DNA of 64,000 bases. Origin: Streptomyces sp. NRRL S-646 (GTDB taxonomy: Bacteria > Actinomycetota > Actinomycetes > Streptomycetales > Streptomycetaceae). The position numbers were made by a program, and so were the translations under genes. A model generated the notes under the pieces. It was not told the origin of the DNA and did no database searches. It saw nothing but the letters and a program-made list of their open reading frames with translations. Below are positions 47,000 through 64,000 of the stretch, in pieces. Each line of letters starts with the position of its first letter. The stretch's first letter is position 1. The stretch covers positions 1-64,000 of the forward strand of contig NZ_JODC01000003.1 in assembly GCF_000720765.1 (NCBI RefSeq). The letters are read 5' to 3'.

Positions 47000-47071
47000 G
47001 CCCCCGTAGCTCAGGGGATAGAGCAACGGCCTCCGGAGCCGTGTGCGCAGGTTCGAATCCTGCCGGGGGCA
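47000..47071 (+). tRNA. tRNA-Arg (anticodon CCG)
   Basis: 72-nt cloverleaf. The acceptor stem GCCCCCG (47000-47006) pairs with CGGGGGC (47064-47070), with discriminator A. The D-arm holds GCTC...GAGC. The anticodon arm ACGGC-CTCCGGA-GCCGT has anticodon CCG, reading CGG. The T-arm has GTTCGAATC. CCA is not encoded. Core synteny stops just after it, and the following 17 kb looks acquired, so it is a plausible integration site. Confidence 0.96.
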
Positions 47072-47080
47072 CCGGAAATC

Positions 47081-47536: not shown

Positions 47537-50272
47537 CTATTGAGAGTCCTGCTCGGCTACCGGAGCCGGGGCCACGGCAAGAGGTAGGAAGTACTCCTCG
47601 GCCAGCTTCGCGAGGTGTAGCGGGAGGGGCCGGGAGAGCGGGTGGTACTCATCATGGAAGCGCAGCTGATGGGCGGCCGCTGCAACCACGGCGGGCCGGT
47701 CCGGGGCTATACCGGCGCGCCCTGCGGCCGCCAGAGCCGACTCGGACAGGCAGCCGAGCACGGTGAGTTCCAGAGCCTGCGGGTTCCAGGCGGTGGCTGC
47801 GGGGCCGTGTGGCCAATCCTTGTGGGGCACCAGCTTGCGCAGGTCATTCCGCACCGTGCCCGCAGTGGGCGGCTTGCCGACGGTACTGATGAACACCCGA
47901 TCGTCCGGGCCCGCGCCCTGTGCCGCCCACAGACCGGCGGAGAACCCTGGCGTCTCCTCATCGGTCTCGGCAGGTGCGTACCACTGGGGTGTCTCGCCAC
48001 GGCTGTTGGCGTCCCGAAGCAGCACCATCCGCAGGTCCCTTCCGAAGAGCGCGAGCCGGGCGGGCGGCTCGCCATGGAACGTGACCATGTCTCTGCGCAA
48101 CTGGCCGTTGTTGAGGCCGGGCCAAGCCTCACGCAGGTTGCCGCTGTTCGCCAGCAGTAGGGTCGGCCGGTCGCGCACCTGGTAGAGCAGCGACCTGATC
48201 TGGCGCTCGACCTCGTCGCGCCGCTCCTCGGTAGTCGAGGCAAATCGGCCTGATCGGGTGCGCGTTGCGGTGGCATCCGCCACGGCGCCATCGGTGGCAA
48301 GGGTGAGCAGCAGTTGGGCGTAAGGTACCCATTTCTTACGGGCGTCGTCCCACCCTCGTACGGGGTGCACCGGATCGTGTGGGCGGATCCGGAGAGCGAC
48401 CAGGCGCTGTCCGGCCTGCCGCGTCGGTCCGTTGGCCTTTCGCCGGACCTGCCAGAGCGCAAGGTATTGGAGGTCGTCTGCCACTGCCTCGTCCAGCCGC
48501 TGATCCGGCGGGACCACGGCCCCGAGCTGGCGCATCCCGTCAGCCAGGGCGGACCGGGCACGCAGAGCCACAGCTCCGTCGGAGTCCTCCGGTACGACGA
48601 TAAACTGGCTGACCCGCCGGGCTGCGGCGCAGCCGTGCCGCAGTGCCGACTTGGGGTCGGAGTCCTGTACTGAGAACCGATCGGGGCCCAGCGTCTCTAC
48701 GATCGCCAGCCCCACCGGACTGGTTCGAGGGCCAAGCTGGGCAGCTGTCAGCGCGGCCCGCTCCCGCACGGCCTCGGCCAGTGCCTGGGCTCGCGACCGG
48801 CCGGATTTCCGGACGACCAACAACGGGGCGCCCAGGGCACCAAGTGGCCGGGCACGGAGCACAACGTGCAGGTCTCCGTCCTGCCACTCATAGTCGCCTT
48901 CCACTCCGCCAGAGCCGGTCGGAAGTCCCAACCACTCGCGAAGCATCGCGATCAACTCGTCGCGGGTTTCCTCGGTCTGCCAGAGCACGTCTATCAGCAG
49001 CGGCTGCCCGCCGAGTGCCGCGCGCACCGCGTCGCGCCGGGCTTGCACGCGCCGTCGGGAGCGCACCTCCTGCTTCTCCAGATCCTTCGTCGCAGAGGTG
49101 GGCAGCAGGGCGGGCTTGGCCTTCCGATGCGCGCGTTCCAGGTCGGGCACTCGACGCAGGACTGGGTGGAGACTCTCCTCAAACCACTGATCGAGGAGCG
49201 AACGTTCGAGTGGCATAAGTCCGGTGCCGACGCCGTGCCGGCCCATCGCCGTGCTGTGCAGGATGCCTGCGGCAACTCCGTCGCGGCCCTCGATCCAGTC
49301 CACCGGTTCGGTGATCAACTCGGTCGGCTTGGGGTAGGCCCGAAGCACGTCGAGTTCGGGCAGCAGGTCGACCAGGCTATGCCGGCTCCAGGACAGCATG
49401 CCCAGGCCACGGTCGAAGGCCAGGGAGTTGGCAGTCAGCCGTCGGCGCGAACCGTCGGCCCCAGACCAGGGCAGAGGTGCGTCGAGCAGGGCAGTCGCAC
49501 CTCGGCCCTCCGGCAGCCGGACGGGCGATCCGGTGGCCCAGCGGCGGATCCCGTAGGAGACGTGCACCCTGAATCTCGCGGCGAACGGCACTGTCTGGAC
49601 GGTGATGGTCACCAGACCCGAGTAGTACCAGGTGCTTTTCCCTCGGGTGTATGTCCGTGGCGGCCAGCTGACCAGCTCGACGCCCTGGTCGCGGATGACC
49701 AGCCGGAAGGAGAGGTCGACGCCGTTGAGGTGGAGAGGGCGAGCAGCGAGCCTGGCGCCGATCCACTCGGGCAGCAGGTGGTAGAGCCTCCGGTCGGGTT
49801 GGGCCGTGCCTCCCGGGGAGGGCTCCGCTGCGGTGAGGTCCAAGGACTCGTGCCGCCACTGTGGGGTGTGCCGGTCGATCAAAGCCAGTGCCCGATCCAG
49901 GGCCGCTTGGTGGTCGGCCGCACGCTCGGCATCGGAATCGGTGCTGGGCGGCAGGGTCATCACCCACGAGACCAACAACGGGGCGACCAGTTCGGCCGGC
50001 ATCTCCTCGGACGCGTAGAACCAGGGTGACTCGGCACTGTTTCCGGCTCCCCGCCCAGTGGCCACCAGGCCCGGGGCTGTGGCCCGAAGTAGGTCGTTGA
50101 GCTTGCTGATCGGCAGGCCCACCGGTTGTTCCCGGCGACGCCACCGTCGCCGGTAGAGGTCCATGAACTCGGTCCGCCATTCCTCTGGAAAACTGATCAC
50201 GCGATATTGCTCGGTCCAGGCTCCGGCCTGCGGGTCCGGTTCATAGGCGGTGGTGCTGATCAGGCGGTGCAT
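47537..50272 (-). CDS. pPIWI-RE family prokaryotic PIWI/Argonaute-like protein
   Basis: 911 aa from MHRLISTTAYEPDPQ. The start overlaps the helicase stop by 13 bp. An N-terminal X-type module covers roughly the first 350 residues, a MID-like region about 400-560, and a C-terminal RNase H-like PIWI domain follows. Signature stretches are DSDPKSALRHGCA near residue 540, RGWDDARKKWVPYAQLLL, PTLLLANSGNLREAWPGL, MVLLRDANSRGETPQWYA near 760 (the conserved R and E of the name), WNPQALELTV and RPLPLHLAKLAEEY near the end. pPIWI-RE proteins are proposed to act in nucleic-acid-guided (RNA/DNA hybrid or R-loop) defence. Whether its RNase H site is active cannot be settled by eye. Last gene of the operon. 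Confidence 0.87.
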   Translation of the reverse strand: MHRLISTTAYEPDPQAGAWTEQYRVISFPEEWRTEFMDLYRRRWRRREQPVGLPISKLNDLLRATAPGLVATGRGAGNSAESPWFYASEEMPAELVAPLLVSWVMTLPPSTDSDAERAADHQAALDRALALIDRHTPQWRHESLDLTAAEPSPGGTAQPDRRLYHLLPEWIGARLAARPLHLNGVDLSFRLVIRDQGVELVSWPPRTYTRGKSTWYYSGLVTITVQTVPFAARFRVHVSYGIRRWATGSPVRLPEGRGATALLDAPLPWSGADGSRRRLTANSLAFDRGLGMLSWSRHSLVDLLPELDVLRAYPKPTELITEPVDWIEGRDGVAAGILHSTAMGRHGVGTGLMPLERSLLDQWFEESLHPVLRRVPDLERAHRKAKPALLPTSATKDLEKQEVRSRRRVQARRDAVRAALGGQPLLIDVLWQTEETRDELIAMLREWLGLPTGSGGVEGDYEWQDGDLHVVLRARPLGALGAPLLVVRKSGRSRAQALAEAVRERAALTAAQLGPRTSPVGLAIVETLGPDRFSVQDSDPKSALRHGCAAARRVSQFIVVPEDSDGAVALRARSALADGMRQLGAVVPPDQRLDEAVADDLQYLALWQVRRKANGPTRQAGQRLVALRIRPHDPVHPVRGWDDARKKWVPYAQLLLTLATDGAVADATATRTRSGRFASTTEERRDEVERQIRSLLYQVRDRPTLLLANSGNLREAWPGLNNGQLRRDMVTFHGEPPARLALFGRDLRMVLLRDANSRGETPQWYAPAETDEETPGFSAGLWAAQGAGPDDRVFISTVGKPPTAGTVRNDLRKLVPHKDWPHGPAATAWNPQALELTVLGCLSESALAAAGRAGIAPDRPAVVAAAAHQLRFHDEYHPLSRPLPLHLAKLAEEYFLPLAVAPAPVAEQDSQ

Positions 50273-53200
50273 GCGGTGTTCCCTTCGTCGGTGAACTGGA
50301 TGAGGCAGCGGTCGAGGGCAGTCCACATCGGCCGGTAGAGCGCCTGGACGATGTGCCGGTCGGCCGCGGGCACAGGAGTGTCCGGGGTGAAGTAGGGCCT
50401 GAGCACGGCATGGATGCTGTGCAGGAGACTGGTCTTCGGGGTGTCCGGCTGACCTGGCGACTGGCCGGTGGCCAGGTTGGGCGCGAACGCGGCGTCAACG
50501 AAGGCGACCCGGGTGGGTACCGCGCCGCGCACGGAGCGGCCGATCACCTGCCAGATCAGCACGAGTAGATCCCAGGTGACCTGCTTCCGGTCGTCATCGC
50601 TCAGACGGCTCCAGGCCATGCTCCTGGCCAATACCCGGTACCACTGAGAACGGGCCAGGTCCCTGACCTTGCGGGCGCCCAGGCCCAAGGTGAGCTCGCC
50701 CCTGACCCAGTCGGTGAACTCCCCACCGTCGATGGCCCGCACGATCCAGTCGTTGATCGCATGCACCGCCAGGCCGAGGTCGTCGGGACGTGGGTTGGGC
50801 CGAGCGAGGAAGTAGATCGACCCGATTGCGGCGTGCCGGCGGTCGAGGTCGAGGATGTTGTGTCCGCGTTCCACTGCTAGCAGAGGCGCCACCAAGATGT
50901 CGGCATTGGTGTTGGCTAGCGTCTCCACGTCGCCGCGGCGCAGAACGGGGGCGTGGTGTTCGTCGTCATCCGACCATGTGCCAGCGTTGGGGTCGTCGTC
51001 GGACACCAGCCGACGGACTCTGCCCCTCCAGCGCTTGTTAAGGGTGTGCAAGGTGTCCGCCACAAGCTTGGCTTCCTCATAACTGCCGACAAGCAGGAGG
51101 ATGTGGCGGCGGCTCTCCGGGAGGAGCCTCAGCTCCTCCTGGAGACGGCTGATTCCGGTGTCGTCCTTACCAAGGGCGATGGCCATTCGGCGCAGGATGG
51201 CGGCTCGCTGGTCGAGCGGCTCACCCGAGAGCCGCTCTGCCTCATTAGGCACCTGGCACTCGCAAGCCACACGGCACAGACAGCCGTCGCGGACGAACTC
51301 GAAGCGGAACTCGCTCTGTTCAACGATCCGTTTCAGTTCCTTCGGATTCGGCTCAATGATCACGCCGATAGGCACCGGGATGTGGTAGCGGCTAGAGCTC
51401 CCGGCCCAACTGCTGCCCGACATCAGCAGGACATTGGTGCCGGGTCGACCGTCCACCGTCGGCAGGTCAGGCATCGCACGGAGCAGTTCCCGGCCGAGCC
51501 CGCTACAGCGGAAGAAGCGCAACTCTCCGGTACGCGCTCCGCCGAGGTCCGGGCCTTCCATCAGGAACTGAAAGCCGATCACATTGCCCATTGGCGCCTC
51601 GGGCACCATCGGGCCGTAGTCGAGCGGCCTGCGGTACATCTCGTTGAAGCCCAGGTTGAGTGCCGCCGCGACGCGCGGCCACATGGCGTTGATCAGGGCG
51701 AGTTTGGGCTCCAGCGCGCTGAGCAGCAAGGTGAACTCAAAGCGGGTCATCAGTAGGCTCAGCCACTGTTCCGGATTCTCCGGCAGACAGTCCTTCCTCC
51801 GGCGCTTGGCCCTCCTGCGGCTCTCCGCACGCTGCGCAGGTTTCCGCCCCCACTCACCATTGGCGCGGGCACGCAGCTCCTGGTAACGCTCCCGGCCCTC
51901 GTTATTCGGGTCCAGGAGGGGATCGAGGTCGAAGAGGTTGCGGAGCACCTTCTCCAGCCGGCTGCGGGTGTTCTCGCGGTAGTTGGTGTGTAGTAGTTCG
52001 CTCAGCAGGCCGGTGAGTGCAACGCCGTCCTCGGGGATCGGGCGCCGGTCGCCGAACGGATTCTCTCGGAAGCCGTCAAGGATTTCGGTCAGTCGGCGCC
52101 GCGGCGCCCGAAGAGAACGCTCGGCGTCGGGCTCCGCCGCCTCAGCCTGAGTGCCGTCGTGATCTTCCGGCAGCGGGTACCGCTCCTCCAACAGGCGGAG
52201 CTGGAGCGTCCAGGCGCTGAAATAACCAGTCCTGACCCAATCGCGCAGGCCGACGTCACTCACCAACATGGCGACCAGACGGTCCGCTGCGGTCTGCGTG
52301 GTGTTGACAGCAGCCGACCAGTTCTCGACGTCCCGGTCCGACAGCTGGATCCGCCCAGCACCGGCCAACTCACGGATGCGATGCTGGTTGACATCGTCAA
52401 GAAAAGACCGAGTGTCGGGACCGCCGCCGATCAGTGGGATGCCGGGCGCGAACATCCGGTCGAGTTGCATCTGGACCCGGTCTGCTTCGTCGACGATCAC
52501 CAGGTCGCTGCGCCGACAGGCGAGTTCGAGGTAGCGGATGCGCTCATGATTCTGCGGGTGCGGCACCGCCGAGTCGATCAGGCTGGGCGGTGTGGCGACC
52601 CAGACAGCCGCATCGACCAGTTCGCGGGCACCGTGATGGCGGGGGCAGCCCGACCAGAACGGGCAGGCCACCCGGCGCCGTATCCACAGGTCGTCCGCGT
52701 AGTCGCCGCGACTGCCGGGCGGTTGCAGCCTGGTGCACGGTGCCTCGCCGAAACCGAGCAGGTCGTCGGCGAGTTGACCCTCCGCGTGCCGCAGCGCGTT
52801 CAGGGCACAGGACGTGCTCAGGTAAGCGAATCCAGCATCGTCGTGGGTAAGCAGATTGCGCGCGCCACGGCCGACCAGCCGCCGGTGCAGCCGTTCGGCG
52901 TGCTGCTGACGGCCCGTCGCGCCGAGCACCGGTGCGGCCGAACCGGGGACGTACGTGTTGTACAACTGAACCAGTTTGAGCTGCTCGGCGACGTCCCCAA
53001 CCACAACGGTCGCCCGAAGGCCCCGCCTGGCCAGGTGTACCGCCAGCACGTCCCGCAGAGTGCTCTTGCCGGCGCCGACGATGCCCAGCAGATGCTGGAT
53101 CCCGCCTACCTCGAAGGTGTCCGCACATTTGAACTTCCCGGCCTGGCGGGTGAAAAGGTGGATCGCAACCAGCCGTCCGGTCCAATTCTCAGATTTGACC

Positions 53201-53829
53201 GAGTCCATGAACTCCGCAGTCTTCACCAGGTCGTCCCATCGGAAGGTCAGCGGCTCACCCCCGTTCGCCGGGGGTGCCGCAAGGTCGTGGCCGACCGGTG
53301 GCGGCAGGGTGTGCTCAGGGAGCTGGACGGTGGTCAGATGCCGACCGATCGGGAAGGCATGCCGGCCGGCCTTCGCTAACGTCAAGGGGCGTCCGGCGAA
53401 CATCGGCGCCTCGCGCAGCAGCAGCTCGTACGTCTCCCAACGGTCCGGTGCCACCGACAACGAGGAGCGCCGGACGGCCGGAAGACCCGGATCGGCGACC
53501 TCATAGGCACGGAGCTGGCGGTCAAGCCGCTGGTACTCCTCAAGCGCCTCGGTCCAGGCCAGACGACGGCCCCAGGTCCATAGTGTGTGCCGGGCCGTGC
53601 GGAGGGTTCGTTGCCCGGCCGCGTCTACGGCTTCCCAGGCCCACGCGAACGGGTATCCACTGAAAAGCGTCCAGGCATCCGCTGCCGGCGCGCCGGCAGC
53701 AAATCGCTCCTGAAGGACGAGACCAACCTCGATCTCACAAAGGGAGACCAACCGGGCCCTCTTTATCTGCGGTGCGGCTTTCAACAGACAGCTGACCACG
53801 TCACCCAGCGACTGGGCGGTGCTACGCAT
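50260..53829 (-). CDS. DinG/XPD-like Fe-S helicase of the pPIWI-RE island
   Basis: 1189 aa from MRSTAQSLGDVVSCLLK, with GAGGAGGA six bases upstream. The N-terminal about 200 residues look like the 'Z' domain specific to these islands (CEIEVGLVL, FSGYPFAWAWE, LRAYEVADPG). Walker A GIVGAGKST is near 250. Four cysteines near 341, 364, 387 and 392 (CPFWSGC) sit between motifs I and II, the XPD/DinG iron-sulphur position. DEAD-type box VIVDEADRV is near 445, and motif VI QVIGRSVRG is near 1095. It should unwind DNA or RNA-DNA 5' to 3' for the PIWI protein. It overlaps the upstream gene by 8 bp and pPIWI-RE by 13 bp. Codon 151 is TTA. Confidence 0.85.
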   Translation of the reverse strand: MRSTAQSLGDVVSCLLKAAPQIKRARLVSLCEIEVGLVLQERFAAGAPAADAWTLFSGYPFAWAWEAVDAAGQRTLRTARHTLWTWGRRLAWTEALEEYQRLDRQLRAYEVADPGLPAVRRSSLSVAPDRWETYELLLREAPMFAGRPLTLAKAGRHAFPIGRHLTTVQLPEHTLPPPVGHDLAAPPANGGEPLTFRWDDLVKTAEFMDSVKSENWTGRLVAIHLFTRQAGKFKCADTFEVGGIQHLLGIVGAGKSTLRDVLAVHLARRGLRATVVVGDVAEQLKLVQLYNTYVPGSAAPVLGATGRQQHAERLHRRLVGRGARNLLTHDDAGFAYLSTSCALNALRHAEGQLADDLLGFGEAPCTRLQPPGSRGDYADDLWIRRRVACPFWSGCPRHHGARELVDAAVWVATPPSLIDSAVPHPQNHERIRYLELACRRSDLVIVDEADRVQMQLDRMFAPGIPLIGGGPDTRSFLDDVNQHRIRELAGAGRIQLSDRDVENWSAAVNTTQTAADRLVAMLVSDVGLRDWVRTGYFSAWTLQLRLLEERYPLPEDHDGTQAEAAEPDAERSLRAPRRRLTEILDGFRENPFGDRRPIPEDGVALTGLLSELLHTNYRENTRSRLEKVLRNLFDLDPLLDPNNEGRERYQELRARANGEWGRKPAQRAESRRRAKRRRKDCLPENPEQWLSLLMTRFEFTLLLSALEPKLALINAMWPRVAAALNLGFNEMYRRPLDYGPMVPEAPMGNVIGFQFLMEGPDLGGARTGELRFFRCSGLGRELLRAMPDLPTVDGRPGTNVLLMSGSSWAGSSSRYHIPVPIGVIIEPNPKELKRIVEQSEFRFEFVRDGCLCRVACECQVPNEAERLSGEPLDQRAAILRRMAIALGKDDTGISRLQEELRLLPESRRHILLLVGSYEEAKLVADTLHTLNKRWRGRVRRLVSDDDPNAGTWSDDDEHHAPVLRRGDVETLANTNADILVAPLLAVERGHNILDLDRRHAAIGSIYFLARPNPRPDDLGLAVHAINDWIVRAIDGGEFTDWVRGELTLGLGARKVRDLARSQWYRVLARSMAWSRLSDDDRKQVTWDLLVLIWQVIGRSVRGAVPTRVAFVDAAFAPNLATGQSPGQPDTPKTSLLHSIHAVLRPYFTPDTPVPAADRHIVQALYRPMWTALDRCLIQFTDEGNTACTA

Positions 53830-54883
53830 GATTCCTCCTCGCTCGGACGGTTGGCTCCGGTGTGGTGAACTCGCTCGCGGACAGCAGACGCACCCGTGCG
53901 CCGGCGGGCAGCGCACGGTCGAAGTCCTGCCGGTACCCGGCGTACGCCACGAGCTCGTCCGGGACTACGACGTCCAGAGGTCCGCCGAGCCGGGCAGCGA
54001 CATCCGCTGCCCGCAGGGCGGCTGGAACAGGCTGTTCCCGGTTGTGGACCTGAAAGGTGTGGAGTGTCCCGTCGTGGCCGACGACGCGGTGGACACCCAG
54101 GCCCAGCGGGAGCAACTGGGCCTGCGACGTGAGGCGAGAACGGACGGTATATTCGGTGCGGCCTGGGAGCGCGAGGAAGAGCCTGAGCCCGAACGGCAGA
54201 GCCAGGGCGTGCCCGAGTTGGTGCGACGATTCGAATTCGCGGTCCCCCGGTAAACAACCGCCCTCGCACCAGGGACCGGCCGTCGTCACGGGTTTGGCAA
54301 GCAGCAGACAGCTTTTGCAGCGGTGTACCAGCCCGTCGACAGTGAAGCGGTCCGGCACGGGGGCATAGAGGTCTTTGACCAGCTTCCAGGTCTGAGCCAC
54401 AGTCGGCTGGAGCATCTCCATCGGGTCGAACCGGAGGATGATGGGCCGCCGGATGAGGAAATCGCGGCAAAGTGCGAAGCGCTCCACGGTGCCGCAGGCG
54501 TCAGCAAGTTCAGCGAGCCGGGTCTCGGCCTCCTGCTCCAGCGCGCCACGCGGGCCAAGGGAGGCCAGTTCGGCGCAGGTCCGGGTCGGTTCGCCCGCCG
54601 CGGGATCGATCAAGCGGGCATCGTCGGTCAGGAAACCGCTTGGCAACGCCAGTGGCCATCCCGAAGGCCCGCGCTCCCTGCACCAAAGCAGCAACTCTGG
54701 CACTCCGACGGGCACCGGTTGACCGTGCATCAGCCCTAACAGCACCACGCGGTCCAGCGCCAACTGGAGGCTCGACGGATAAGGCAGCCGGAATGTCGAC
54801 GATCGGTCCACTGAAATCAGTTCAATCACGCCCCGGGCCACCTCCGTGAGGAGGTCAACATCCGTTCGTTCATCCCCACTCAC
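53822..54883 (-). CDS. pPIWI-RE island Y-domain protein with degenerate REase-like domain
   Basis: 353 aa, GTG start overlapping the nuclease stop (GTGA). Residues about 10-180 resemble the 'Y' domain of pPIWI-RE islands (YPSSLQLALDRVVLLGL, PELLLWCRERGPSGWPLALP, RTCAEL). Then a zinc-ribbon-like set C189, C192, C206, C210 leads into a restriction-endonuclease-like fold (LALPGRTEYTVRSRL, DGTLHTFQVHNREQP, PLDVVVPDELVAYAGY). In active relatives, as I recall them, the core strand carries D-x-K; here it reads Q278-V-H, so catalysis is probably lost. Two TTA codons (49 and 211). Role: complex scaffold or nucleic-acid binding. Confidence 0.72.
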   Translation of the reverse strand: MSGDERTDVDLLTEVARGVIELISVDRSSTFRLPYPSSLQLALDRVVLLGLMHGQPVPVGVPELLLWCRERGPSGWPLALPSGFLTDDARLIDPAAGEPTRTCAELASLGPRGALEQEAETRLAELADACGTVERFALCRDFLIRRPIILRFDPMEMLQPTVAQTWKLVKDLYAPVPDRFTVDGLVHRCKSCLLLAKPVTTAGPWCEGGCLPGDREFESSHQLGHALALPFGLRLFLALPGRTEYTVRSRLTSQAQLLPLGLGVHRVVGHDGTLHTFQVHNREQPVPAALRAADVAARLGGPLDVVVPDELVAYAGYRQDFDRALPAGARVRLLSASEFTTPEPTVRARRNHA

Positions 54884-56454
54884 CGGCTTGTCCCCGCTCC
54901 GTGCCCCTGCGGCCGCCGGGCAGAGCACCATCTGGCCACCTCGCAGGTGGCACACTCGGCGCCAGGGACGGCCTCGAAGAGCGTCTCCGCGTGCCAGCCC
55001 GAAACTTGCTCGCGCAGTACCGCCTCAGCGGCAGCCTGGGTCTCCGGAGCAAACGGGTCGAGGATCCGCAGATCGACGCCTCCGGGGTGCAGCAGTTCCA
55101 GTTCGACCCGTCCTCCGGCCTGCGGTCTGGGCAGCACGCCACCAGCAATGACACGTACGCCCAAGGCCAGTTGAGGATAGGTGGCCAGTATGTTGCGACG
55201 CGGACGGTCACTGGCGGAGGTCTTGGTCTCCCGCCAGATCCAGGAACCCGCTTCCCGGTACAGCAGGTCGGGCTCTGCCAAGACCAGCAAGTCGGCCGCG
55301 GTGTCGTCGAACACCAGCCGGGGCTCAGTCTGGATCTCCGATCGCGGTTCAGCCGTACGGAGTGGGCACACCTCGGCGTGATGACGCAATAACTCGGCCC
55401 CGAGCTGCCGCTCCTCGTCGGGGAGCCGGTAGTCCTCAGGCACCCAGTTCGCTGGGATCTCGGGGGTACACGGCGTACCCGACCACTGGCCATGCCGCTC
55501 AGCGAGGAACGCGTGGACCGCCCGACCACGCTCGACGGCTGCCCCCCGCTCCACGGTGTCATCGGCTGGGAGCCGAAGGCCGCGCAGATAGCCGCGGGCC
55601 GGACAGCTCCGGTGCCCCCGCCCGGTGGTCGAGGACCAACTGCGCCGCGGCCGACTCCGATCGGCTATCCCGAGAAGCCCCTCAGCCCGCGGAAGCGCCG
55701 GACAGACCGGCGCAACAGCACACGAAGTACAGGCAGTACCGGGCCGGTACTCCTGGCTGTCGAGCAGTGCGCGGACAGCGGGCGCCCCGTCGGCCCGGTA
55801 CAAGGCCAATGCCTCGTCCCGATTGCCATCGAAGATCGTGTCCGTTCGACCGTCGGACAGCGCGAACTGGACAACCCTGACCCATTCGAGCCGGGGATCG
55901 AGATTCCCCTCCGCCACAACCAGGGCGGCCACGGCGCGCTCCGCCGCGCTGCGCTTACGAAGCCGGTTGACCGGTAGGCGTAGCTCACGCAAGCGGCCGT
56001 CGTCGGACTCGAAGCACAGTCCCCACGCTGTGATCCGATACTCCACAGTGTCCCGCCCTTCGCTGCTTGGGCGGTGGTGCCTGTATACCCAAGGCCGACG
56101 GGTGAGTCGGAGGTCCAGATCCGCAGAGAACGCCTCCTGGTACATCCGGAGCGCATGCTCGGTCCACTGCCGAACGCCGTCATGCAGCGGACGCCGCCGA
56201 CCGCCGCGAGACACGCTCGGCGGAAGCTCGTCCACCGGCCATTCGAGTTTGTCAGCCTCGTCCATGAAGGGGCCGTTCGGAAACGGGTTCAGCACCTCGG
56301 GCTTCCAAGCGGCCCGCTCGCGCGGCCGCAGTCCGCGAGCCTTCAGCGCATCGGACGCCGGGCATCGGTACCGCTCTGGACCGAACATGCCCAGGCGTAC
56401 CTCAATGACGCCGGAATCCCCAACCAGGCCGTCGGGTGGCCAACTCGCTGTCAT
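54880..56454 (-). CDS. RecB/Cas4-like PD-(D/E)XK nuclease with two Cys4 modules
   Basis: 524 aa from MTASWPPDGLVGDSG, with GTGAGGAC upstream. The C-terminal half is a complete AddB/Cas4-type nuclease: C284 (SCPARGYLR), H314 (GRAVHAFL), D396 (AEPDLLY), E409-x-K411 (WRETKTS), and C501, C504, C510 closing an Fe-S-type cluster. The N-terminal half repeats the plan with C31 (RCPASDAL) and C242, C245, C251, but has no E-x-K (RELRLP instead), so it looks like an inactive copy. First gene of a four-gene overlapping operon with the pPIWI-RE system. Codon 355 is TTA. Confidence 0.8.
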   Translation of the reverse strand: MTASWPPDGLVGDSGVIEVRLGMFGPERYRCPASDALKARGLRPRERAAWKPEVLNPFPNGPFMDEADKLEWPVDELPPSVSRGGRRRPLHDGVRQWTEHALRMYQEAFSADLDLRLTRRPWVYRHHRPSSEGRDTVEYRITAWGLCFESDDGRLRELRLPVNRLRKRSAAERAVAALVVAEGNLDPRLEWVRVVQFALSDGRTDTIFDGNRDEALALYRADGAPAVRALLDSQEYRPGTACTSCAVAPVCPALPRAEGLLGIADRSRPRRSWSSTTGRGHRSCPARGYLRGLRLPADDTVERGAAVERGRAVHAFLAERHGQWSGTPCTPEIPANWVPEDYRLPDEERQLGAELLRHHAEVCPLRTAEPRSEIQTEPRLVFDDTAADLLVLAEPDLLYREAGSWIWRETKTSASDRPRRNILATYPQLALGVRVIAGGVLPRPQAGGRVELELLHPGGVDLRILDPFAPETQAAAEAVLREQVSGWHAETLFEAVPGAECATCEVARWCSARRPQGHGAGTSR

Positions 56455-56533
56455 AATGTCCTCACTTCTCTGCACCCCGGGGCATGCGATCGAGCCGGCC
56501 GGGAAATTTTCTTTCGGGTACGGAGCGTGCGCC

Positions 56534-57427
56534 TTGCTTCCTGGAACTCTTCTGAACGGCCGTTACCGAGTTTTGCGACCGCTCGGTCACGGCGGCGAAG
56601 GCGAGATCTTCGTTGCCCGGGACGAGCACCTCCGCAAGGACGTGGCGGTCAAATCGCAGTTTCACCGGACCTTCGAGTCGACAGCCGACTATTCCTATTT
56701 CGGCCAACATCTAGAAAGGGAGCTCGAACGACTTCGATTCATGTCGAACGTGCGGGGGATCCCGGAGGTGTTGGGGGACGGTCGCTATGGATGGAGCGAA
56801 CGCCGGTACATCGTGATGGAACTCATCGAGGGCATCACGGTCGCGTCGTGGATCAACGAGCACCATCCCGTTCCTGCCGCTGCAGCCATGTCGGTTGTCG
56901 CACAGCTCTGCGAGATTCTGAATGGCGTGCACGCCGAGAGATATGTCCATCGGGACGTCACACCGAACAACGTCATGATGCAACCCGACGGCCGGGTCCG
57001 GCTGCTGGATGTGGGCATCTCTGTCCCGATCGGAGAGGAGAACGCCGATCCTCGCGGCACTCCCGGATACGCCGCCCCGGAGCAGTACGACCCAACCTCG
57101 GTGCTCACCCCGCAGGCCGACGTCTTCTCCCTCGGCGCCATGTTGTTCGCGATGACCGTGTCAGAGTTGCCGTACAGCGGCCGGGACAGTCCGCCCGACG
57201 GCACGACCCCCGCCTTCCCAAACGACTTCCGTGCCGAGATGCCGGAAGCACTCCGGAGTCTCGCGCTCGCCATGGTCTCCGTCGATCCGCACGAGCGGCC
57301 GAGCGGCGTGGCCGAGGTGTTGGGCTATCTACGGCCAATGCTGCCCAAGTCTGACTCCCTCGCGTCCCCGAAGGCCACGCGACCCGACCCAACGGCCCCA
57401 TACCGGCTCGGCTTGTCCGGACCGTGA
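56534..57427 (+). CDS. serine/threonine protein kinase, soluble
   Basis: 297 aa from a TTG (LLPGTLLNGRYRVLRPLG) preceded by GGAG. An in-frame ATG at 56456 is an alternative, but it sits one base from the divergent nuclease ATG. A complete Hanks-type kinase: glycine loop GHGGEGE, K40 in VAVK, HRD 139-141 with N146 (HRDVTPNNV), DVG 159-161 in place of DFG, GTPGYAAPEQ, DVFSLGAML. No membrane helix or sensor domain is visible; a short disordered tail follows. It converges on an AfsR-like gene, so an AfsK-AfsR type relay is likely. No TTA codon. Confidence 0.87.
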   Translation: MLPGTLLNGRYRVLRPLGHGGEGEIFVARDEHLRKDVAVKSQFHRTFESTADYSYFGQHLERELERLRFMSNVRGIPEVLGDGRYGWSERRYIVMELIEGITVASWINEHHPVPAAAAMSVVAQLCEILNGVHAERYVHRDVTPNNVMMQPDGRVRLLDVGISVPIGEENADPRGTPGYAAPEQYDPTSVLTPQADVFSLGAMLFAMTVSELPYSGRDSPPDGTTPAFPNDFRAEMPEALRSLALAMVSVDPHERPSGVAEVLGYLRPMLPKSDSLASPKATRPDPTAPYRLGLSGP

Positions 57428-57448: not shown

Positions 57449-60163
57449 TCACGGCAGGCACCTCAACTGCTCGACAGCCGTGTCGAGGTCGCTCTCACCC
57501 AGTTCTCCCAGCAGGACCTGAGCCCGCTCGATCGCCTCCTCAGCCTCCCGAGGCCGACCGGCACCACAGAGCGCTTCCGCGAGCCAGACCAGCGTCCTGG
57601 CCTCCCGGCTCCCATAATTCAGCGACTGGTAGAGGTCGCGGGCACGCTCGAAGTCCATGACGGCGGCCTCGTGCTCCGCCAGTGCCACCCGGATCCGGCC
57701 CAGGCTGAACAACACATGTGCCCGACCATTTACGTCATCCGTGGCGTCCAGCAGGGCCAGTGACCGCAGGCAGTGCTCCACACCCTCGTCGTACTGGCCC
57801 AAGTCGTAGCGGGCACTCCCAATGCCGTTAAGGGCGGCTCCGCTACCCAAGGGATCGCCAAGTCGTTCGAAGGCAGACAAGGCAGCCGTGAAGTGGTCCA
57901 GCGCCTCACTCGGTGCGCCGTTCTCTCGCAGCAGAACGCCTAAAACGTAACGCCCCATGGCAACACCCGGAACGTCTCCGTCGTCCTCGCTCACCCGTAC
58001 CGCCCTGCGCAGTTCTTGCGTCGCCTGGGCCAGATTACCGAGGCCGCGATAAGTACCGGCAAGCATCCGGTGAACCATAGCCACATCCGCCGGACCGGCC
58101 TCCCGCCTCGCAGCCTCGAGAGCGCTAGTCAGGTACTTGAGCGCATCCAAATTGCGCCCAGAGCGCCACTGGAAGGTCACCAGGGCCATCGACAGCAACC
58201 ATGTGTAGCGGTCGAGTCCACGATTCTCGGCAAGCCTGACCGCAGCAGTCAGCGTCGAGTACTCGTTCTCGAACCAGGACATCGCATCCGCCGCGCAAGT
58301 CGGAGCCACGACTTCGACGTCCCGTGGTTCGCCAATCGGCAGTCGGCGGCCAGGATCCAGCTTCCGGTCACAAACCCAGGCGTTGTGCAGCAGGAAGTGC
58401 AGCACTCGCTCCACCACCCGGGCTTGCTCGGCTTCGTCCTGCCGATCCGCCAGTTCGCCGGCATAGACACGGACCAGGTCGTGCAGAAAGTAGCGCTCAA
58501 AGGTCGGCTCAGTCACAAGGCTCATCCGCATCAGGTCATCCATGGCGTTACTCACGCCGACGGCGTCGTCCGATTCGAGCGCCCGCAGCGCCGCCCAACT
58601 GACCGTCGGCCCCGGGTGAACCGCCATCTGCCAAAGAAGCCTGGCCGCCGGCGCCGACAGCAGCCTGTGCGACGCTTCCAGCGACAGGCGAACGCTCAGG
58701 TTCTCCGAGCCCATGTCAAGGGAACGCAGTCTGGTGCTCTCCTGCCGCAATTCGCGGACCACGCCTGCGAGCGCCGCAGGTGGGCGTTGCGCAATTCGGG
58801 CGGCCATGATCCCGAGCGCCAGCGGCACCCCGCCGCAGTGCTCGACCAGGTCGTCGACGAACGGGATGGCCATGCGCATCCGGTCTTCACCCAGCCGTGT
58901 CCTCAACAGTTCGGTCGCTTCCTGCCGATCCAGCGGAGGGAGGTCTACCAGGTCCGCTCCCTCCCGGATCGCCAGCCCATGTAAGTGACGACGACTGGTG
59001 ACGATCGCCGCGCTCGCCCCGAGTCCGGGAAGCAGCAGGCGGACATGCTCCTCATCACGCGCGTTGTCCAGGATGAGCAGGACTGCGCGGTCCGCAAGGG
59101 CGGTCCTGTAAGCGGAGACCATGCCGTCCATCGTCGGGGTCGAGGGCCGCACTCCGAGATCGTTCAGGAGCCTGGCAAGGACGGGGCCATGCCGCTCCGG
59201 CTCTCTTGGCGAGAATCCACCGAGGTCGACGTAGAGGATCCCGTCCGGGAAGCTCTGCTCGACCCGGGCGGCCGCCCGCACAGCGAGGAAGGTCTTCCCG
59301 ACACCGGGCATGCCGGTAAACACGACAACCTTGCTCCGCCCAGCCGTACGTCCCAGGAGAGTCTCCGTTAGTCGGCCGATCTGAGGCTGACGGCCGATCA
59401 GTTCGACCGGCTGTGACGGAAGCTGCCGGGGCTTCGCACGGGTCGACGCCGATGGGTTGCCAGCCGCTGCCGACCCTGCTTCTTCTGCCTCGCCAGCGAG
59501 CAGCAAGTGAACGGTGGGCCGACCAAACTGGCGCTCCCAGCGGGCGAGCAGCGACTCAATCTGGTCATGCCTGCCGAGCGTGCGCAGGGCACGCACCTTG
59601 AGTTCGAGTAGTGTCTCGCTCTCCGGCCAGCGGGTCAGCGCGGAGCTGGCCCGGTCGAGCGCGGCAGGCGCCTGACCGCACTCCAATTCGGCGAGGACAC
59701 ATGCCACCATCGCCTCCTTCAGCTCGGTGATGAGTTCGCCGCGTTTTCGTCCGAATCCTTCTTCCGGCATGTCTTCCAGGGGTGTTCCCCGCCACTCACC
59801 GAGAGCTGATCTGAGCGCCTTGAGACGCACAGACGTGCTCCCTGCGGTATCTGCAGCGCGGCAGAATTCATGGAAGCGAACGTAGTCGACACTCAACGGA
59901 TCAGCCTGAATCTGGCAGTACCCTCGCTCGTTCTGCTGGGTGATATCTGGCAACGATTGCCGCAATTGATGAAAACACTGGCGAATTCGATTAGCGTTCG
60001 CCTCCTCACCCGGCCACAGGTGGCGCATAACGCCAACGTGCGAGGCACGATGACCGGGCGCCATGAGTAGAACAGCGAGGAGTTCGAGAGCCTTCGCCGA
60101 CTTCATCCTGACCGGCAGCCCCGCCCGCAGCGCAACCACCGGTCCCAGTACTCGAAATTCCAT
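57449..60163 (-). CDS. AfsR-type SARP regulator with NB-ARC and TPR domains
   Basis: 904 aa from ATG (MEFRVLGPVVALRAG); a TTG three codons upstream is possible. OmpR-like winged helix about 1-95 (VLLMAPGHRASHVGVM, RIRQCFHQLRQSLP), BTAD helical domain about 95-245, NB-ARC ATPase about 255-560 with P-loop 284-291 GMPGVGKT, Walker B VLLILDNARDEE, and GGVPLALGIMAAR. TPR repeats run from about 600 to the end. This is the AfsR architecture: an activator of secondary-metabolite or other genes, gated by nucleotide and often by kinase phosphorylation. It faces the kinase gene tail-to-tail (21-bp gap). Two TTA codons (58982-58984 and 57941-57943). Confidence 0.92.
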   Translation of the reverse strand: MEFRVLGPVVALRAGLPVRMKSAKALELLAVLLMAPGHRASHVGVMRHLWPGEEANANRIRQCFHQLRQSLPDITQQNERGYCQIQADPLSVDYVRFHEFCRAADTAGSTSVRLKALRSALGEWRGTPLEDMPEEGFGRKRGELITELKEAMVACVLAELECGQAPAALDRASSALTRWPESETLLELKVRALRTLGRHDQIESLLARWERQFGRPTVHLLLAGEAEEAGSAAAGNPSASTRAKPRQLPSQPVELIGRQPQIGRLTETLLGRTAGRSKVVVFTGMPGVGKTFLAVRAAARVEQSFPDGILYVDLGGFSPREPERHGPVLARLLNDLGVRPSTPTMDGMVSAYRTALADRAVLLILDNARDEEHVRLLLPGLGASAAIVTSRRHLHGLAIREGADLVDLPPLDRQEATELLRTRLGEDRMRMAIPFVDDLVEHCGGVPLALGIMAARIAQRPPAALAGVVRELRQESTRLRSLDMGSENLSVRLSLEASHRLLSAPAARLLWQMAVHPGPTVSWAALRALESDDAVGVSNAMDDLMRMSLVTEPTFERYFLHDLVRVYAGELADRQDEAEQARVVERVLHFLLHNAWVCDRKLDPGRRLPIGEPRDVEVVAPTCAADAMSWFENEYSTLTAAVRLAENRGLDRYTWLLSMALVTFQWRSGRNLDALKYLTSALEAARREAGPADVAMVHRMLAGTYRGLGNLAQATQELRRAVRVSEDDGDVPGVAMGRYVLGVLLRENGAPSEALDHFTAALSAFERLGDPLGSGAALNGIGSARYDLGQYDEGVEHCLRSLALLDATDDVNGRAHVLFSLGRIRVALAEHEAAVMDFERARDLYQSLNYGSREARTLVWLAEALCGAGRPREAEEAIERAQVLLGELGESDLDTAVEQLRCLP

Positions 60164-60859: not shown

Positions 60860-62218
60860 TTATTCGTACTCGCACAACAGGTTTGCGATGCGCTGGTTGG
60901 CGATCGCCTGGCGTCCATACAGGCACTTGGCGTAGCTGTTCATAAGGACCTCGACGCTGTTGCCTGCGCGTTCGGCGACCTCGGTGGGATCGACGCCGGC
61001 GTTGAGCCAGGTGGACAAAGCCGAGTGCCGCAGGTCATAAGGACGGCCTGCGAGCAGTGAGCGCACCAGGTCGGGCGAGAGGGCAAGTTCACGGGCCTCA
61101 CGCCAGACGCGATCGTAGGCGCTGGACCCGACGATGCCACCGCGCTCGTTGAAGAACAGCCGCCCGTCGTCCGCCGCGCCGAAGGTGTCGATGCTCTCCC
61201 GCCAGATCGACACCAGCTCGGGCGGCATCGGTACGGGCCGGGTGTCGTCAGCCGGGCGGCCCTTGAGACCGCGCTCGTCGTGGGCTCTTCCAGTGTCAGT
61301 CCACCGCCTGCCCGCCTGCGGCAGTGTGCGATGCACGGTCACCTGCCCCCAGCCCTCCGCGGGCAGCACGCAGTTGGACAAAGACACCCCGACCGCTTCG
61401 GCGGGGCGCAGCCCGGCGTAGTACATCCCGGCGAACAGTCCGACCAGCCGCCGTCCACGAGCCCGCCGGTAACTGCCGACGTAGGAGACCGCGCGCAGCA
61501 GGGAACGCGCCTGACCTGGGTTGGCGACCACCCGTGGGTCAACCTGGTGGACGGTCTCAGCCACGCTCCATTTGATGGGAGCAAGTGGGTCGCCGGGCAA
61601 CTTGCGCTGCTCGACGGCGTACCGAACCGCATTGACCAGGACCTTGTGCTTGTGCCGCTGCGTCTCGGCCGCCGCCACCGCGCCATCCTGCTTGAGCCGC
61701 AGGGCTGTCAACACCGACCGCATCACAGCCGGATCCATCAGATCGGCCAACGGACGCGAGGCTCCCGCCACCCAGCGCAGGGCCAGCCGGACATCCGCCG
61801 GCATCTGGCACGGCTCCGGGCATGGGACGACGAACGCCCAGCCCCGCATCGCCCGCCGCAGCAGTTCATCGCTCGGACGGCCCCGCACGTCCCGGAGCAT
61901 CGCCCGGGTGATCGCGCACAGCGCATCGTTGGTCTCATCCCGGGTCTTCGCCGCGATCAGCGGCCACCTCATCTCGATGTACTCCAGAGCAAAGGCGTAC
62001 CAGCTGACCCCAGCCGCGCGACCCTGTGGCGAGCCACGGCTGATCCCCGCAGGGGACTCATCCGCAGCGCCTTGCCGAACGGAACGGAGGAGCGCCGCGC
62101 CGAGGTCATCGGCCAGCGCCCTGATATCCGTAGCACCCGCTGTGCGGCGAACGGCCACGGCCCTGCTTCCACGTCTCCTGCCGGGGACGCCGCGCGCCTG
62201 AGATTTCGAGTTCCTCAT
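60860..62218 (-). CDS. tyrosine-type site-specific recombinase (integrase)
   Basis: 452 aa from MRNSKSQARGVPG. A core-binding helical region covers about 60-250. The catalytic domain has Arg in YYAGLRPAEAVG, then PYDLRHSALSTWLNAG and AGNSVEVLMNSYAKCL with the nucleophile Tyr. The positions usually His in HxLRH and GHS read Tyr and Asn, a variant I associate with actinobacterial integrases of this type. It marks the acquired segment. No excisionase is adjacent. The natural target may be the tRNA-Arg 13.8 kb away, but no second att copy was seen in the window. Confidence 0.88.
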   Translation of the reverse strand: MRNSKSQARGVPGRRRGSRAVAVRRTAGATDIRALADDLGAALLRSVRQGAADESPAGISRGSPQGRAAGVSWYAFALEYIEMRWPLIAAKTRDETNDALCAITRAMLRDVRGRPSDELLRRAMRGWAFVVPCPEPCQMPADVRLALRWVAGASRPLADLMDPAVMRSVLTALRLKQDGAVAAAETQRHKHKVLVNAVRYAVEQRKLPGDPLAPIKWSVAETVHQVDPRVVANPGQARSLLRAVSYVGSYRRARGRRLVGLFAGMYYAGLRPAEAVGVSLSNCVLPAEGWGQVTVHRTLPQAGRRWTDTGRAHDERGLKGRPADDTRPVPMPPELVSIWRESIDTFGAADDGRLFFNERGGIVGSSAYDRVWREARELALSPDLVRSLLAGRPYDLRHSALSTWLNAGVDPTEVAERAGNSVEVLMNSYAKCLYGRQAIANQRIANLLCEYE

Positions 62219-62373
62219 GACGTCCACCACCCTTCTGTTCAGGTGAACGTCCTGGATGCCCACATAAAGCCCCGGCAGCAACGACGCCGCGCACTCCCCT
62301 CTGCGCACCCCAGACAAGGATGGAGCCATCCGCAGCGAGCGACTCGACAGTTCGCTGCGCCACTCCCGCATGC

Positions 62374-62394
62374 AGGTAGGATCCAAGGTAGGAT
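62374..62394 (+). promoter_or_regulatory. vapB promoter/operator direct repeat
   Basis: AGGTAGGAT at 62374-62382 and again at 62386-62394, 12 bp apart, ending eight bases before the antitoxin ATG. TAGGAT also fits a -10 hexamer, so the mRNA may be nearly leaderless. Repeats at this place are typical operators for RHH antitoxin autoregulation. Confidence 0.5.
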
Positions 62395-63178: not shown

Positions 63179-64000
63179 TCACCTTCGGCGTGCCCCTCGG
63201 GAAATGCGTACGGGTGCCTCCCAGGCTTTATGTCCCTTCCGCGCCGAGCACGCCCGATTGAAGCACCGCCAATACCAGGCTCCGTTGCCTCGGCGGCGCA
63301 GGTCCACGTCGTCCCCCTTGCACGCACTGCACCGGGGAGGTCTCGCGAAGTCCTCCGCGTGCTCGTGGGCGAGGATCTTGCGGGCGAAGTGGCCACCCTT
63401 GATCGTCAGCATGACCTCGCGCGAGCGGCTTTGCGACAGAGAGTTGAGGCTGCCGAGCAGGACTGTCTGTTCGTCGATGACGACGATCTTCTGGTGCATG
63501 ACATTGACGGAGACGACGGTCGGCACGACTTTCCGCAACTGCTTGACCAGTTCGGTCTGCTTCTTCTGGCCAGTGTCGTAGGGGTCCCGGACGAAGACCG
63601 TGACACGAACTCCTCGCCGCACGGCGTCTTCCAGCACGGGCAGCAAGCCGATCAGTCGCTTCGCAGTCCAGGGGGACCAGATCCACAGCGACGTTCGAGC
63701 CTCTGCGAGACGGTCGGCGAACGTGTCGTAGAAGGAGATCTCGTCGTCGATGTCGGAGACCTCGACGTGGCGGGAGAGAACCTCGGCGAGACGGGAGCTG
63801 AACTGGCCAAGGTCTGGCGGAACTTGGGCGTTGGGAGCGATGAGTCTGGTCGCGGGGACCGACCGGGCACGCTGTGCGCGGATGAACTCCCCCAGTTTTC
63901 CCATGGGGGTGTGTTCTTCTGCGGCCAGGATGCGGCTGCGGCTTCCGATGACGTACAGCCTGGTCTGTACGCGGGTGACGGCTACGTTGAAGAGGCGCAC
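63179..64000 (-). CDS. C-terminal part of an SF1 helicase-PLD nuclease-zinc ribbon protein (Mokosh type II-like), truncated by window
   Basis: 274 residues are visible; the N-terminus lies beyond the window edge. The first visible residues RLFNVAVTRVQTRLYVIGS match motif VI of UPF1-like SF1 helicases (AAA_12). A phospholipase-D-like domain follows, with one HKD motif (MHQKIVVIDE, then GSLNSLS). The C-terminus carries a zinc ribbon (CSACKG ... CFNRACSARKG). Helicase plus PLD in one chain is the layout of MkoC of the Mokosh type II anti-phage system. The call rests on this C-terminal third. Confidence 0.68.
   Translation of the reverse strand: MRLFNVAVTRVQTRLYVIGSRSRILAAEEHTPMGKLGEFIRAQRARSVPATRLIAPNAQVPPDLGQFSSRLAEVLSRHVEVSDIDDEISFYDTFADRLAEARTSLWIWSPWTAKRLIGLLPVLEDAVRRGVRVTVFVRDPYDTGQKKQTELVKQLRKVVPTVVSVNVMHQKIVVIDEQTVLLGSLNSLSQSRSREVMLTIKGGHFARKILAHEHAEDFARPPRCSACKGDDVDLRRRGNGAWYWRCFNRACSARKGHKAWEAPVRISRGARRR

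What the first reader, a model, noticed from the sequence alone, without database searches (positions are those of the whole stretch)
47537..56454. Four-gene pPIWI-RE operon downstream of tRNA-Arg
Four minus-strand genes overlap by 4, 8 and 13 bp: RecB/Cas4-like nuclease, Y-domain/REase-like protein, DinG-like Fe-S helicase and pPIWI-RE. The known island type is described with three genes (PIWI-RE, DinG-type helicase, REase). A fourth, first-position nuclease in the same transcript suggests an expanded effector complex acting on R-loops or replicating foreign DNA. Overlaps and motifs are seen in the sequence; the family assignment is from knowledge of the Burroughs/Aravind pPIWI-RE class; the function is inferred.
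Basis: partly seen in the sequence, partly recalled or inferred. Interest (0 to 1): 0.92.

Follow-up and report, generated by a model that had tools for sequence, protein, structure and literature searches.

The report
PIWI-RE defence operon with kinase switch
A soil actinobacterium carries, on what looks like a genomic island at a transfer-RNA gene, a probable anti-invader system built around a relative of Argonaute, in which an added DNA-cutting enzyme seems to have taken over from a decayed one and a kinase gene with a regulator gene sits next to it.

Summary
In detail: four minus-strand genes overlap by 4, 8 and 13 bp, in the order PD-(D/E)XK nuclease (PDX), Y/zinc-ribbon/REase, DinG-type helicase, pPIWI-RE. 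The four-gene set is not new to databases: PADLOC-DB 2.0 has four matching models, including PprPDDEXK. The order holds in 103 of 103 four-gene loci compared.

What I found beyond the finding:
(1) PDX looks like a tandem duplicate of a Cas4/AddB-type Fe-S nuclease; the active-site residues of the C half and eight cysteines are invariant in 94 of 94.
(2) The older REase has lost its D-D-DxK core in 50 of 94 four-gene loci, the window included, but in 0 of 31 three-gene loci.
(3) A divergent Ser/Thr kinase gene abuts PDX in 77 of 94 four-gene and 0 of 31 three-gene loci. An AfsR-like NB-ARC-TPR gene adjoins 49 of 50 REase-dead but 1 of 44 REase-intact four-gene loci.
(4) tRNA-Arg 3'-end repeats bound the locus.

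Best reading: PIWI-RE defence in which PDX is the working nuclease, under kinase/AfsR-like control. Function is inferred; REase loss rests on two or three events.

The parts
54880..56454 (-). PDX: PD-(D/E)XK nuclease, 524 aa; tandem Cas4/AddB-like fold, C half with D396/E409/K411/Q428, two four-Cys sets (C31+C242/245/251; C284+C501/504/510)
   Evidence: (PprPDDEXK 448 bits)
53822..54883 (-). Y domain + zinc ribbon + REase-like protein; the D-D-DxK core is lost here (G, R or V, Q, H by alignment)
   Evidence: (PprRE 321 bits)
50260..53829 (-). DinG-type SF2 helicase with Z domain; Walker A, four Cys, DExD and QxxGRxxR all present
   Evidence: (PprDinG 833 bits)
47537..50272 (-). pPIWI-RE protein, 911 aa (X, MID and RNase H-fold domains); no Asp seen in the first core strand and Asn at the second expected site, so probably no slicer activity
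   Evidence: (PprPIWI 807 bits)
56534..57427 (+). Divergent Ser/Thr protein kinase, about 297 aa (ATG at 56456 is an alternative start); conserved neighbour of PDX
57449..60163 (-). AfsR-like BTAD-NB-ARC-TPR (SARP/STAND) protein, 904 aa; neighbour of REase-dead operons
47000..47073 (+). tRNA-Arg (CCG), the presumed integration site of the island
47031..47072 (+). att-like direct repeat at the tRNA 3' end (42 bp); repeated at contig C3:66844-66885 and, as 47 bp, at C3:74803-74849, both outside the window
   Evidence: lengths read by eye
60860..62386 (-). Possible tyrosine recombinase of the island (weak PF00589 match, 22.8 bits, below the cut-off of 27.1)

Best explanation
This is a PIWI-RE defence system, actinobacterial four-gene type, probably carried on a tRNA-Arg island. 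Proposed working: PIWI-RE, through its MID domain, binds a short guide strand and recognises invading DNA or a DNA-RNA hybrid without cutting it; the DinG-type helicase opens or tracks along the target; the Y/zinc-ribbon protein, whose REase core is lost here, serves as adaptor; and PDX, a tandem Cas4/AddB-like Fe-S nuclease, destroys the DNA (and may also trim guides). A divergent Ser/Thr kinase and an AfsR-like NB-ARC-TPR protein next door sense a signal and switch the operon or its proteins on, in the manner of AfsK-AfsR. Shown by sequence: the genes, their order, the invariant PDX site, the decayed REase core, the conserved neighbours, the tRNA-end repeats. Inferred: every biochemical and regulatory step, and the defence role.
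Against: No experiment on a four-gene system turned up in my paper searches. The one studied PIWI-RE I saw, from Pseudomonas stutzeri, cuts nucleic acid itself and its deletion raises ciprofloxacin sensitivity, which hints at a role in replication (PMC10991935, abstract, introduction and part of the results). 26 of 50 REase-dead loci keep an Asp at the second PIWI site (the window has Asn), so slicer loss is less sure there. REase loss amounts to three changes on the trees, and one of them (L072) still has ExK, so only two are firm; the independent-pairs test is not significant, and a branch-length share gives 0.035 for three events, about 0.11 for two by my arithmetic. 17 of 94 four-gene loci have no kinase within 1 kb: L074-L085, L087, L088, L094, L095 and L072. 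L061, with intact REase, also has an AfsR-like gene adjacent, and L094 and L095 have one 3.7-3.9 kb away. The AfsR-like protein could regulate something else.
Confidence: 0.5

Rival explanations
1. PDX is a guide- or end-processing enzyme (as CRISPR Cas4 trims prespacers, AddB/Dna2 resect ends), and killing of the target is done by another nuclease or by blocking replication.
For: Closest folds are AdnA/AddAB, ACE1, Cas4, Dna2, RecE and MGME1, many of them end-processing nucleases (recalled). 44 of 94 four-gene loci keep an intact REase as well.
Against: In 50 of 94 loci no other complete nuclease site is seen in the four proteins, although an unlinked host nuclease cannot be excluded.
Confidence: 0.25
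2. The locus is a housekeeping or replication-stress module (R-loop or fork repair), not a defence system.
For: DinG acts on R-loops (argued in PMC3702460, section read); the P. [quoted passage not shown]
Against: Patchy presence: PF13111 in 99 of 392 genomes of the window's genus and 6 of 396 genomes drawn from the phylum; tRNA-end repeats; three-gene copies on eight plasmids: six cyanobacterial, one Azospirillum, one Streptomyces.
Confidence: 0.12
3. Kinase and AfsR-like gene are mere passengers or control only themselves; the defence operon is constitutive.
For: Such genes are common in this genome (56 kinase and 14 BTAD places); 17 of 94 four-gene loci lack the kinase within 1 kb.
Against: One kinase place per about 190 kb makes a kinase within 1 kb in 77 of 94 loci far from random, and three-gene loci give 0 of 31. 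Relatedness reduces the number of independent cases.
Confidence: 0.2

Closest known systems
pPIWI-RE three-gene system (Burroughs, Iyer and Aravind 2013, PMC3702460; section on the bacterial family read)
   Same: PIWI-RE, DinG-type helicase with Z domain, Y/zinc-ribbon/REase protein; same gene order; overlapping or tight spacing.
   Different: PDX added as first gene; REase core lost in the window. The section read describes a strict three-gene order; a word search of the main text found 'RecB' 0 times, and the kinase passages shown concern eukaryotic Mediator. Supplements were not seen.
PADLOC-DB 2.0.0 models PprPIWI, PprDinG, PprRE, PprPDDEXK
   Same: All four proteins match these models at high score, so this gene set is already catalogued there.
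   Different: The kinase matches other PADLOC kinase models (PD-T4-6, mad6 and more) and the AfsR-like protein only a TPR model; no Ppr model among those shown. The PADLOC paper PMC8565338 does not contain 'PIWI' or 'Ppr' in its main text.
Argonaute-associated Cas4-family protein ACE1 (PDB 9iab, 9iac; titles)
   Same: A Cas4/AddB-like nuclease associated with a PIWI-domain protein; with AdnA among the top two kinds of fold match of each half of PDX by Foldseek or VIA.
   Different: ACE1 chains are 266-269 residues, about the size of one PDX half; PDX has two such units, and its partner is PIWI-RE, not a classical Argonaute. The work itself was not read.
AfsK-AfsR of Streptomyces (PMC10972967, passages; AfsR structures 8jke, 8k60)
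   Same: Ser/Thr kinase plus BTAD-NB-ARC-TPR protein; the window protein matches AfsR over residues 2-889 (E 4e-58).
   Different: Here the pair sits beside a nuclease operon, the kinase is short (about 297 aa), and phosphorylation is only inferred.

Membership tests
pPIWI-RE system | PIWI-RE protein with X, MID and RNase H-fold domains | tested here: met
   PF13111, PF18157, PF13032 over cut-off
pPIWI-RE system | Signature R and E of the PIWI-RE sheet | tested here: inconclusive
   E835 in 92 of 94 four-gene and 29 of 31 three-gene loci; my guess at the R column (R748) is 82 of 94 but only 8 of 31, so that column is not settled
pPIWI-RE system | DinG-type helicase with Fe-S cysteines and Z domain | tested here: met
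   PF18155; four Cys, Walker A GK, DExD and QxxGRxxR residues in 52 of 52 four-gene and 27 of 27 three-gene loci
pPIWI-RE system | Y/zinc-ribbon/REase protein | tested here: met
   PF18156, PprRE full length; the nuclease core itself is lost in the window
pPIWI-RE system | Guide-dependent targeting of nucleic acid | not testable with these tools
   needs biochemistry
PADLOC Ppr four-gene set | All four component models match | tested here: met
   PADLOC's own system rules were not seen
Cas4/AddB-like Fe-S nuclease | PD-(D/E)XK core residues | tested here: met
   D396, E409, K411, Q428 in 94 of 94
Cas4/AddB-like Fe-S nuclease | Four-Cys cluster flanking the nuclease fold | tested here: met
   two such sets, 94 of 94; metal not shown
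Cas4/AddB-like Fe-S nuclease | Fold | tested here: met
Restriction endonuclease (gene 2) | D-D-DxK core | tested here: not met
   window reads G, R or V, Q, H
AfsR family | BTAD, NB-ARC and TPR in one protein, homology over the full length | tested here: met
   window protein; of its counterparts, L054 and L166 showed NB-ARC and TPR but no BTAD match
AfsK-AfsR pair | Kinase phosphorylates the partner | not testable with these tools
   adjacency only

The most novel reading that the evidence does not exclude
A signal-gated Argonaute-type defence: a kinase/AfsR-like (STAND) pair, tied to the locus in evolution, licenses a PIWI-RE complex whose killing activity has passed from the ancestral REase to an acquired tandem Cas4-like nuclease. 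Once the gated nuclease and the STAND regulator were in place, the old REase decayed, at least twice.
Probability: 0.35. Interest if true: 0.8.

Novelty: new variant of a known kind. Interest (0 to 1): 0.62.

Why it matters
How operon-type PIWI-RE systems attack a target is, as far as I saw, unknown. If PDX has replaced the REase, the effector is named and becomes directly testable by one active-site change, and the REase-dead clade is a natural experiment. I found no paper that links a kinase or an AfsR-like regulator with a PIWI-RE operon (searches; open-licence papers only, and most subscription papers are not held). It would link the AfsK-AfsR type of regulation with defence in actinobacteria, and would be a second pairing of a PIWI-module protein with a Cas4-like nuclease, besides the Argonaute-ACE1 pairing named in PDB titles.

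Tried and rejected
Rejected or unsupported: that the fourth gene is an unknown association (PADLOC-DB has it); that tRNA adjacency is general (6 of 51 four-gene loci scanned hold a tRNA gene: tRNA-Arg in L059 and L057, other tRNAs in L040, L046, L064 and L094); that REase loss proves replacement statistically (few events); a phage origin (no PHROGs match for the four proteins; no record of the phage collection matched the Nostoc PIWI-RE, the only query tried there). Sequence comparison of the two PDX halves alone was weak (70% probability over 83 columns); the duplication rests on the models and the repeated order of elements. PDX matched no PDB chain by sequence profile, PIWI-RE none. Mapping of the P. 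stutzeri catalytic D525/D610 was not possible, as that sequence was not at hand; slicer loss rests on strand position. The PDX-based scan of named genomes leans to kin of its query, so its share of dead REases is no population estimate. Dropped before counts: L051 (cut by contig end), L086 and L092 (decayed), L162 and L175 (broken), then identical PIWI rows (103 to 94 and 32 to 31). Kept though one gene is in two frames: L127 (PIWI) and L137 (DinG); L112 showed its RE in two pieces. Of 112 PIWI-RE places in the genus sample (119 rows less 7 pieces of the same gene, my count) I looked at 78 in full, the window included; the 34 not fetched score at most 93.2 bits and none lies beside a PDX match. 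Kinase and AfsR-like counts use one-seed searches at E 1e-10, so distant kinases may be missed.

Full report
Observation. Six-frame ORFs and the sequence give four minus-strand genes with overlaps of 4, 8 and 13 bp, as reported. Pfam assigns pPIWI-RE X, MID and RNase H domains, the Z domain of the DinG-type helicase, the Y domain of the REase protein, and PD-(D/E)XK for the first gene; only the REase model itself falls below its cut-off. PADLOC-DB 2.0 holds one or more models for each of the four proteins, PprPIWI, PprDinG, PprRE and PprPDDEXK, all matched at high score. So the four-gene set is catalogued. A word search of the open-paper library for these names found six papers, all by the stem pPIWI (62 uses in Burroughs 2013, 1 to 6 in the others), none with the Ppr names searched.

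Survey. In 392 genomes of the window's genus, PF13111 occurs in 99 and PprPDDEXK in 62, seven of the latter by weak or short matches only (my count). By my reading of those tables and, 54 of 56 strong PDX matches lie beside PIWI-RE, counting L051 (cut) and L092 (decayed); the two exceptions are L115 and L116. I fetched 80 stretches, of which 77 are PIWI-RE places of that genus besides the window, and annotated them with profiles built here. A scan of named genomes with a PDX alignment gave 53 loci, all actinobacterial as I read the record titles, from genera such as Streptomyces, Kitasatospora, Amycolatopsis, Saccharothrix, Nocardiopsis, Frankia, Actinomadura and Kutzneria; each had the other three genes downstream, whole or in pieces. 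Plasmids gave three-gene copies in cyanobacteria, Azospirillum and one Streptomyces. Together, after five cut or broken loci were set aside: 103 four-gene and 32 three-gene loci; order and strand constant in all.

The decayed REase. All 31 three-gene loci keep D-D-DxK; 44 of 94 four-gene loci do and 50 do not. In the first, less selected set the figures are 27 of 27 and 38 of 52. The zinc-ribbon cysteines stay in 94 of 94 and the C-terminal domain keeps its length (median 132 against 135 aa), but the REase-dead proteins diverge faster: at DinG identity 0.55-0.70 the REase region is 0.34 identical against 0.63 in intact four-gene loci. Trees of DinG plus PIWI, not of the RE itself, need three changes (FastTree; IQ-TREE on 51 rows): a clade of 45 that holds the window, a clade of four (L166, L168-L170), and L072, which still has ExK. 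92 of 94 four-gene loci form one clade; L094 and L095 have a PDX among three-gene relatives. The trees carry long branches, and the event count is too small for a firm test.

PIWI-RE. No Asp lies in the first core strand in 92 of 94 four-gene and 30 of 31 three-gene loci, and in 50 of 50 REase-dead loci. At the second expected site, Asp is present in 26 of 50 REase-dead, 6 of 44 REase-intact four-gene and 15 of 31 three-gene loci; the window has Asn. This fits the published remark that only a few members keep the catalytic residues (PMC3702460, PMC10991935, passages), but the P. stutzeri sequence was not at hand for mapping. The conserved MID-region residues D539, K541 and E526 are kept in 94 of 94.

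The neighbours. A Ser/Thr kinase gene, divergent and within 240 bp, stands beside PDX in 77 of 94 four-gene and 0 of 31 three-gene loci, 29 of the latter having at least 1.5 kb upstream. Its catalytic K, D, N and DFG Asp are kept in 77 of 77. The window's genome has 56 kinase places in 10.7 Mb, 52 of them over the cut-off (my count of the rows). Beyond it, 0.9-1.1 kb from PDX and on the operon's strand, lies an AfsR-like protein (window: BTAD, NB-ARC, TPR; AfsR structures match at 4e-58 over residues 2-889) in 45 of 45 loci of the main REase-dead clade; in the second REase-dead clade an NB-ARC-TPR gene lies just downstream on the other strand in 4 of 4 (domains tested in L166 only). L054 of the main clade and L166 of the second showed NB-ARC and TPR but no BTAD match, so BTAD may not be general. 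In sum 49 of 50 REase-dead (not L072) and 1 of 44 REase-intact four-gene loci (L061, downstream) have such a gene adjacent; L094 and L095 have one at 3.7-3.9 kb. Kinases of the REase-intact group have a median of 496 aa from the match start (28 loci), those of the dead group 299 (49 loci). AfsK phosphorylates AfsR in Streptomyces (passage in PMC10972967); by analogy the pair may gate this operon. That is inference.

The island. The tRNA-Arg 3' end recurs exactly at 66863 and 74827 of the same contig, with 42 and 47 bp of identity (read) and no tRNA gene there. Between the tRNA and the first repeat lie the operon, kinase, AfsR-like gene, a weakly recognised tyrosine recombinase and a helicase-PLD protein. 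So the system probably travels on an integrated element; an empty site was not looked for.

Verdict. Observation confirmed; family assignment right; novelty of the four-gene set itself low. The decay of the REase, seen only where PDX is present, the tandem Cas4-like build and the kinase/AfsR-like neighbourhood are what deserve attention.

Noticed in passing
window 63179-64000 (-), continuing to contig C3:66481 (L181:3180-6482): 1100-aa SF1 helicase with a C-terminal PLD domain between the tRNA and the first repeat; PADLOC best matches MkoC and MkoA (Mokosh-like).
   Followed up: partly
contig C11:24447 and 53902 (L182, L183): A second pair of exact tRNA-Arg 3'-end repeats, the first in a tRNA-Arg(CCT), about 29 kb apart: perhaps another integrated element.
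   Followed up: no
L121:8923-10500, L122:8521-10065: PDX relatives without PIWI-RE on a Streptomyces and a Rhodococcus plasmid, each followed by an unnamed protein (weak PIN_4 match in L121) and an ImmA/IrrE metallopeptidase gene: the nuclease seems to be a movable part.
   Followed up: partly
L107 and nine other three-gene loci: Genes of one family stand just upstream of the REase gene on the same strand in 10 three-gene loci; the one tested, L107, has a helix-turn-helix domain.
   Followed up: no
L120:9606-11359: A three-gene operon on a Streptomyces linear plasmid is followed by a small unnamed gene and an Mrr-type nuclease gene: another possible add-on nuclease.
   Followed up: no
L074-L085, L087, L088: 14 REase-intact four-gene loci have no kinase beside PDX. 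In a cluster of six four-gene loci a divergent ORF stands near PDX instead; the one tested, L082, has no Pfam match.
   Followed up: no
L086, L092, L162, L175: Operons with several frame breaks or gaps, described only.
   Followed up: no
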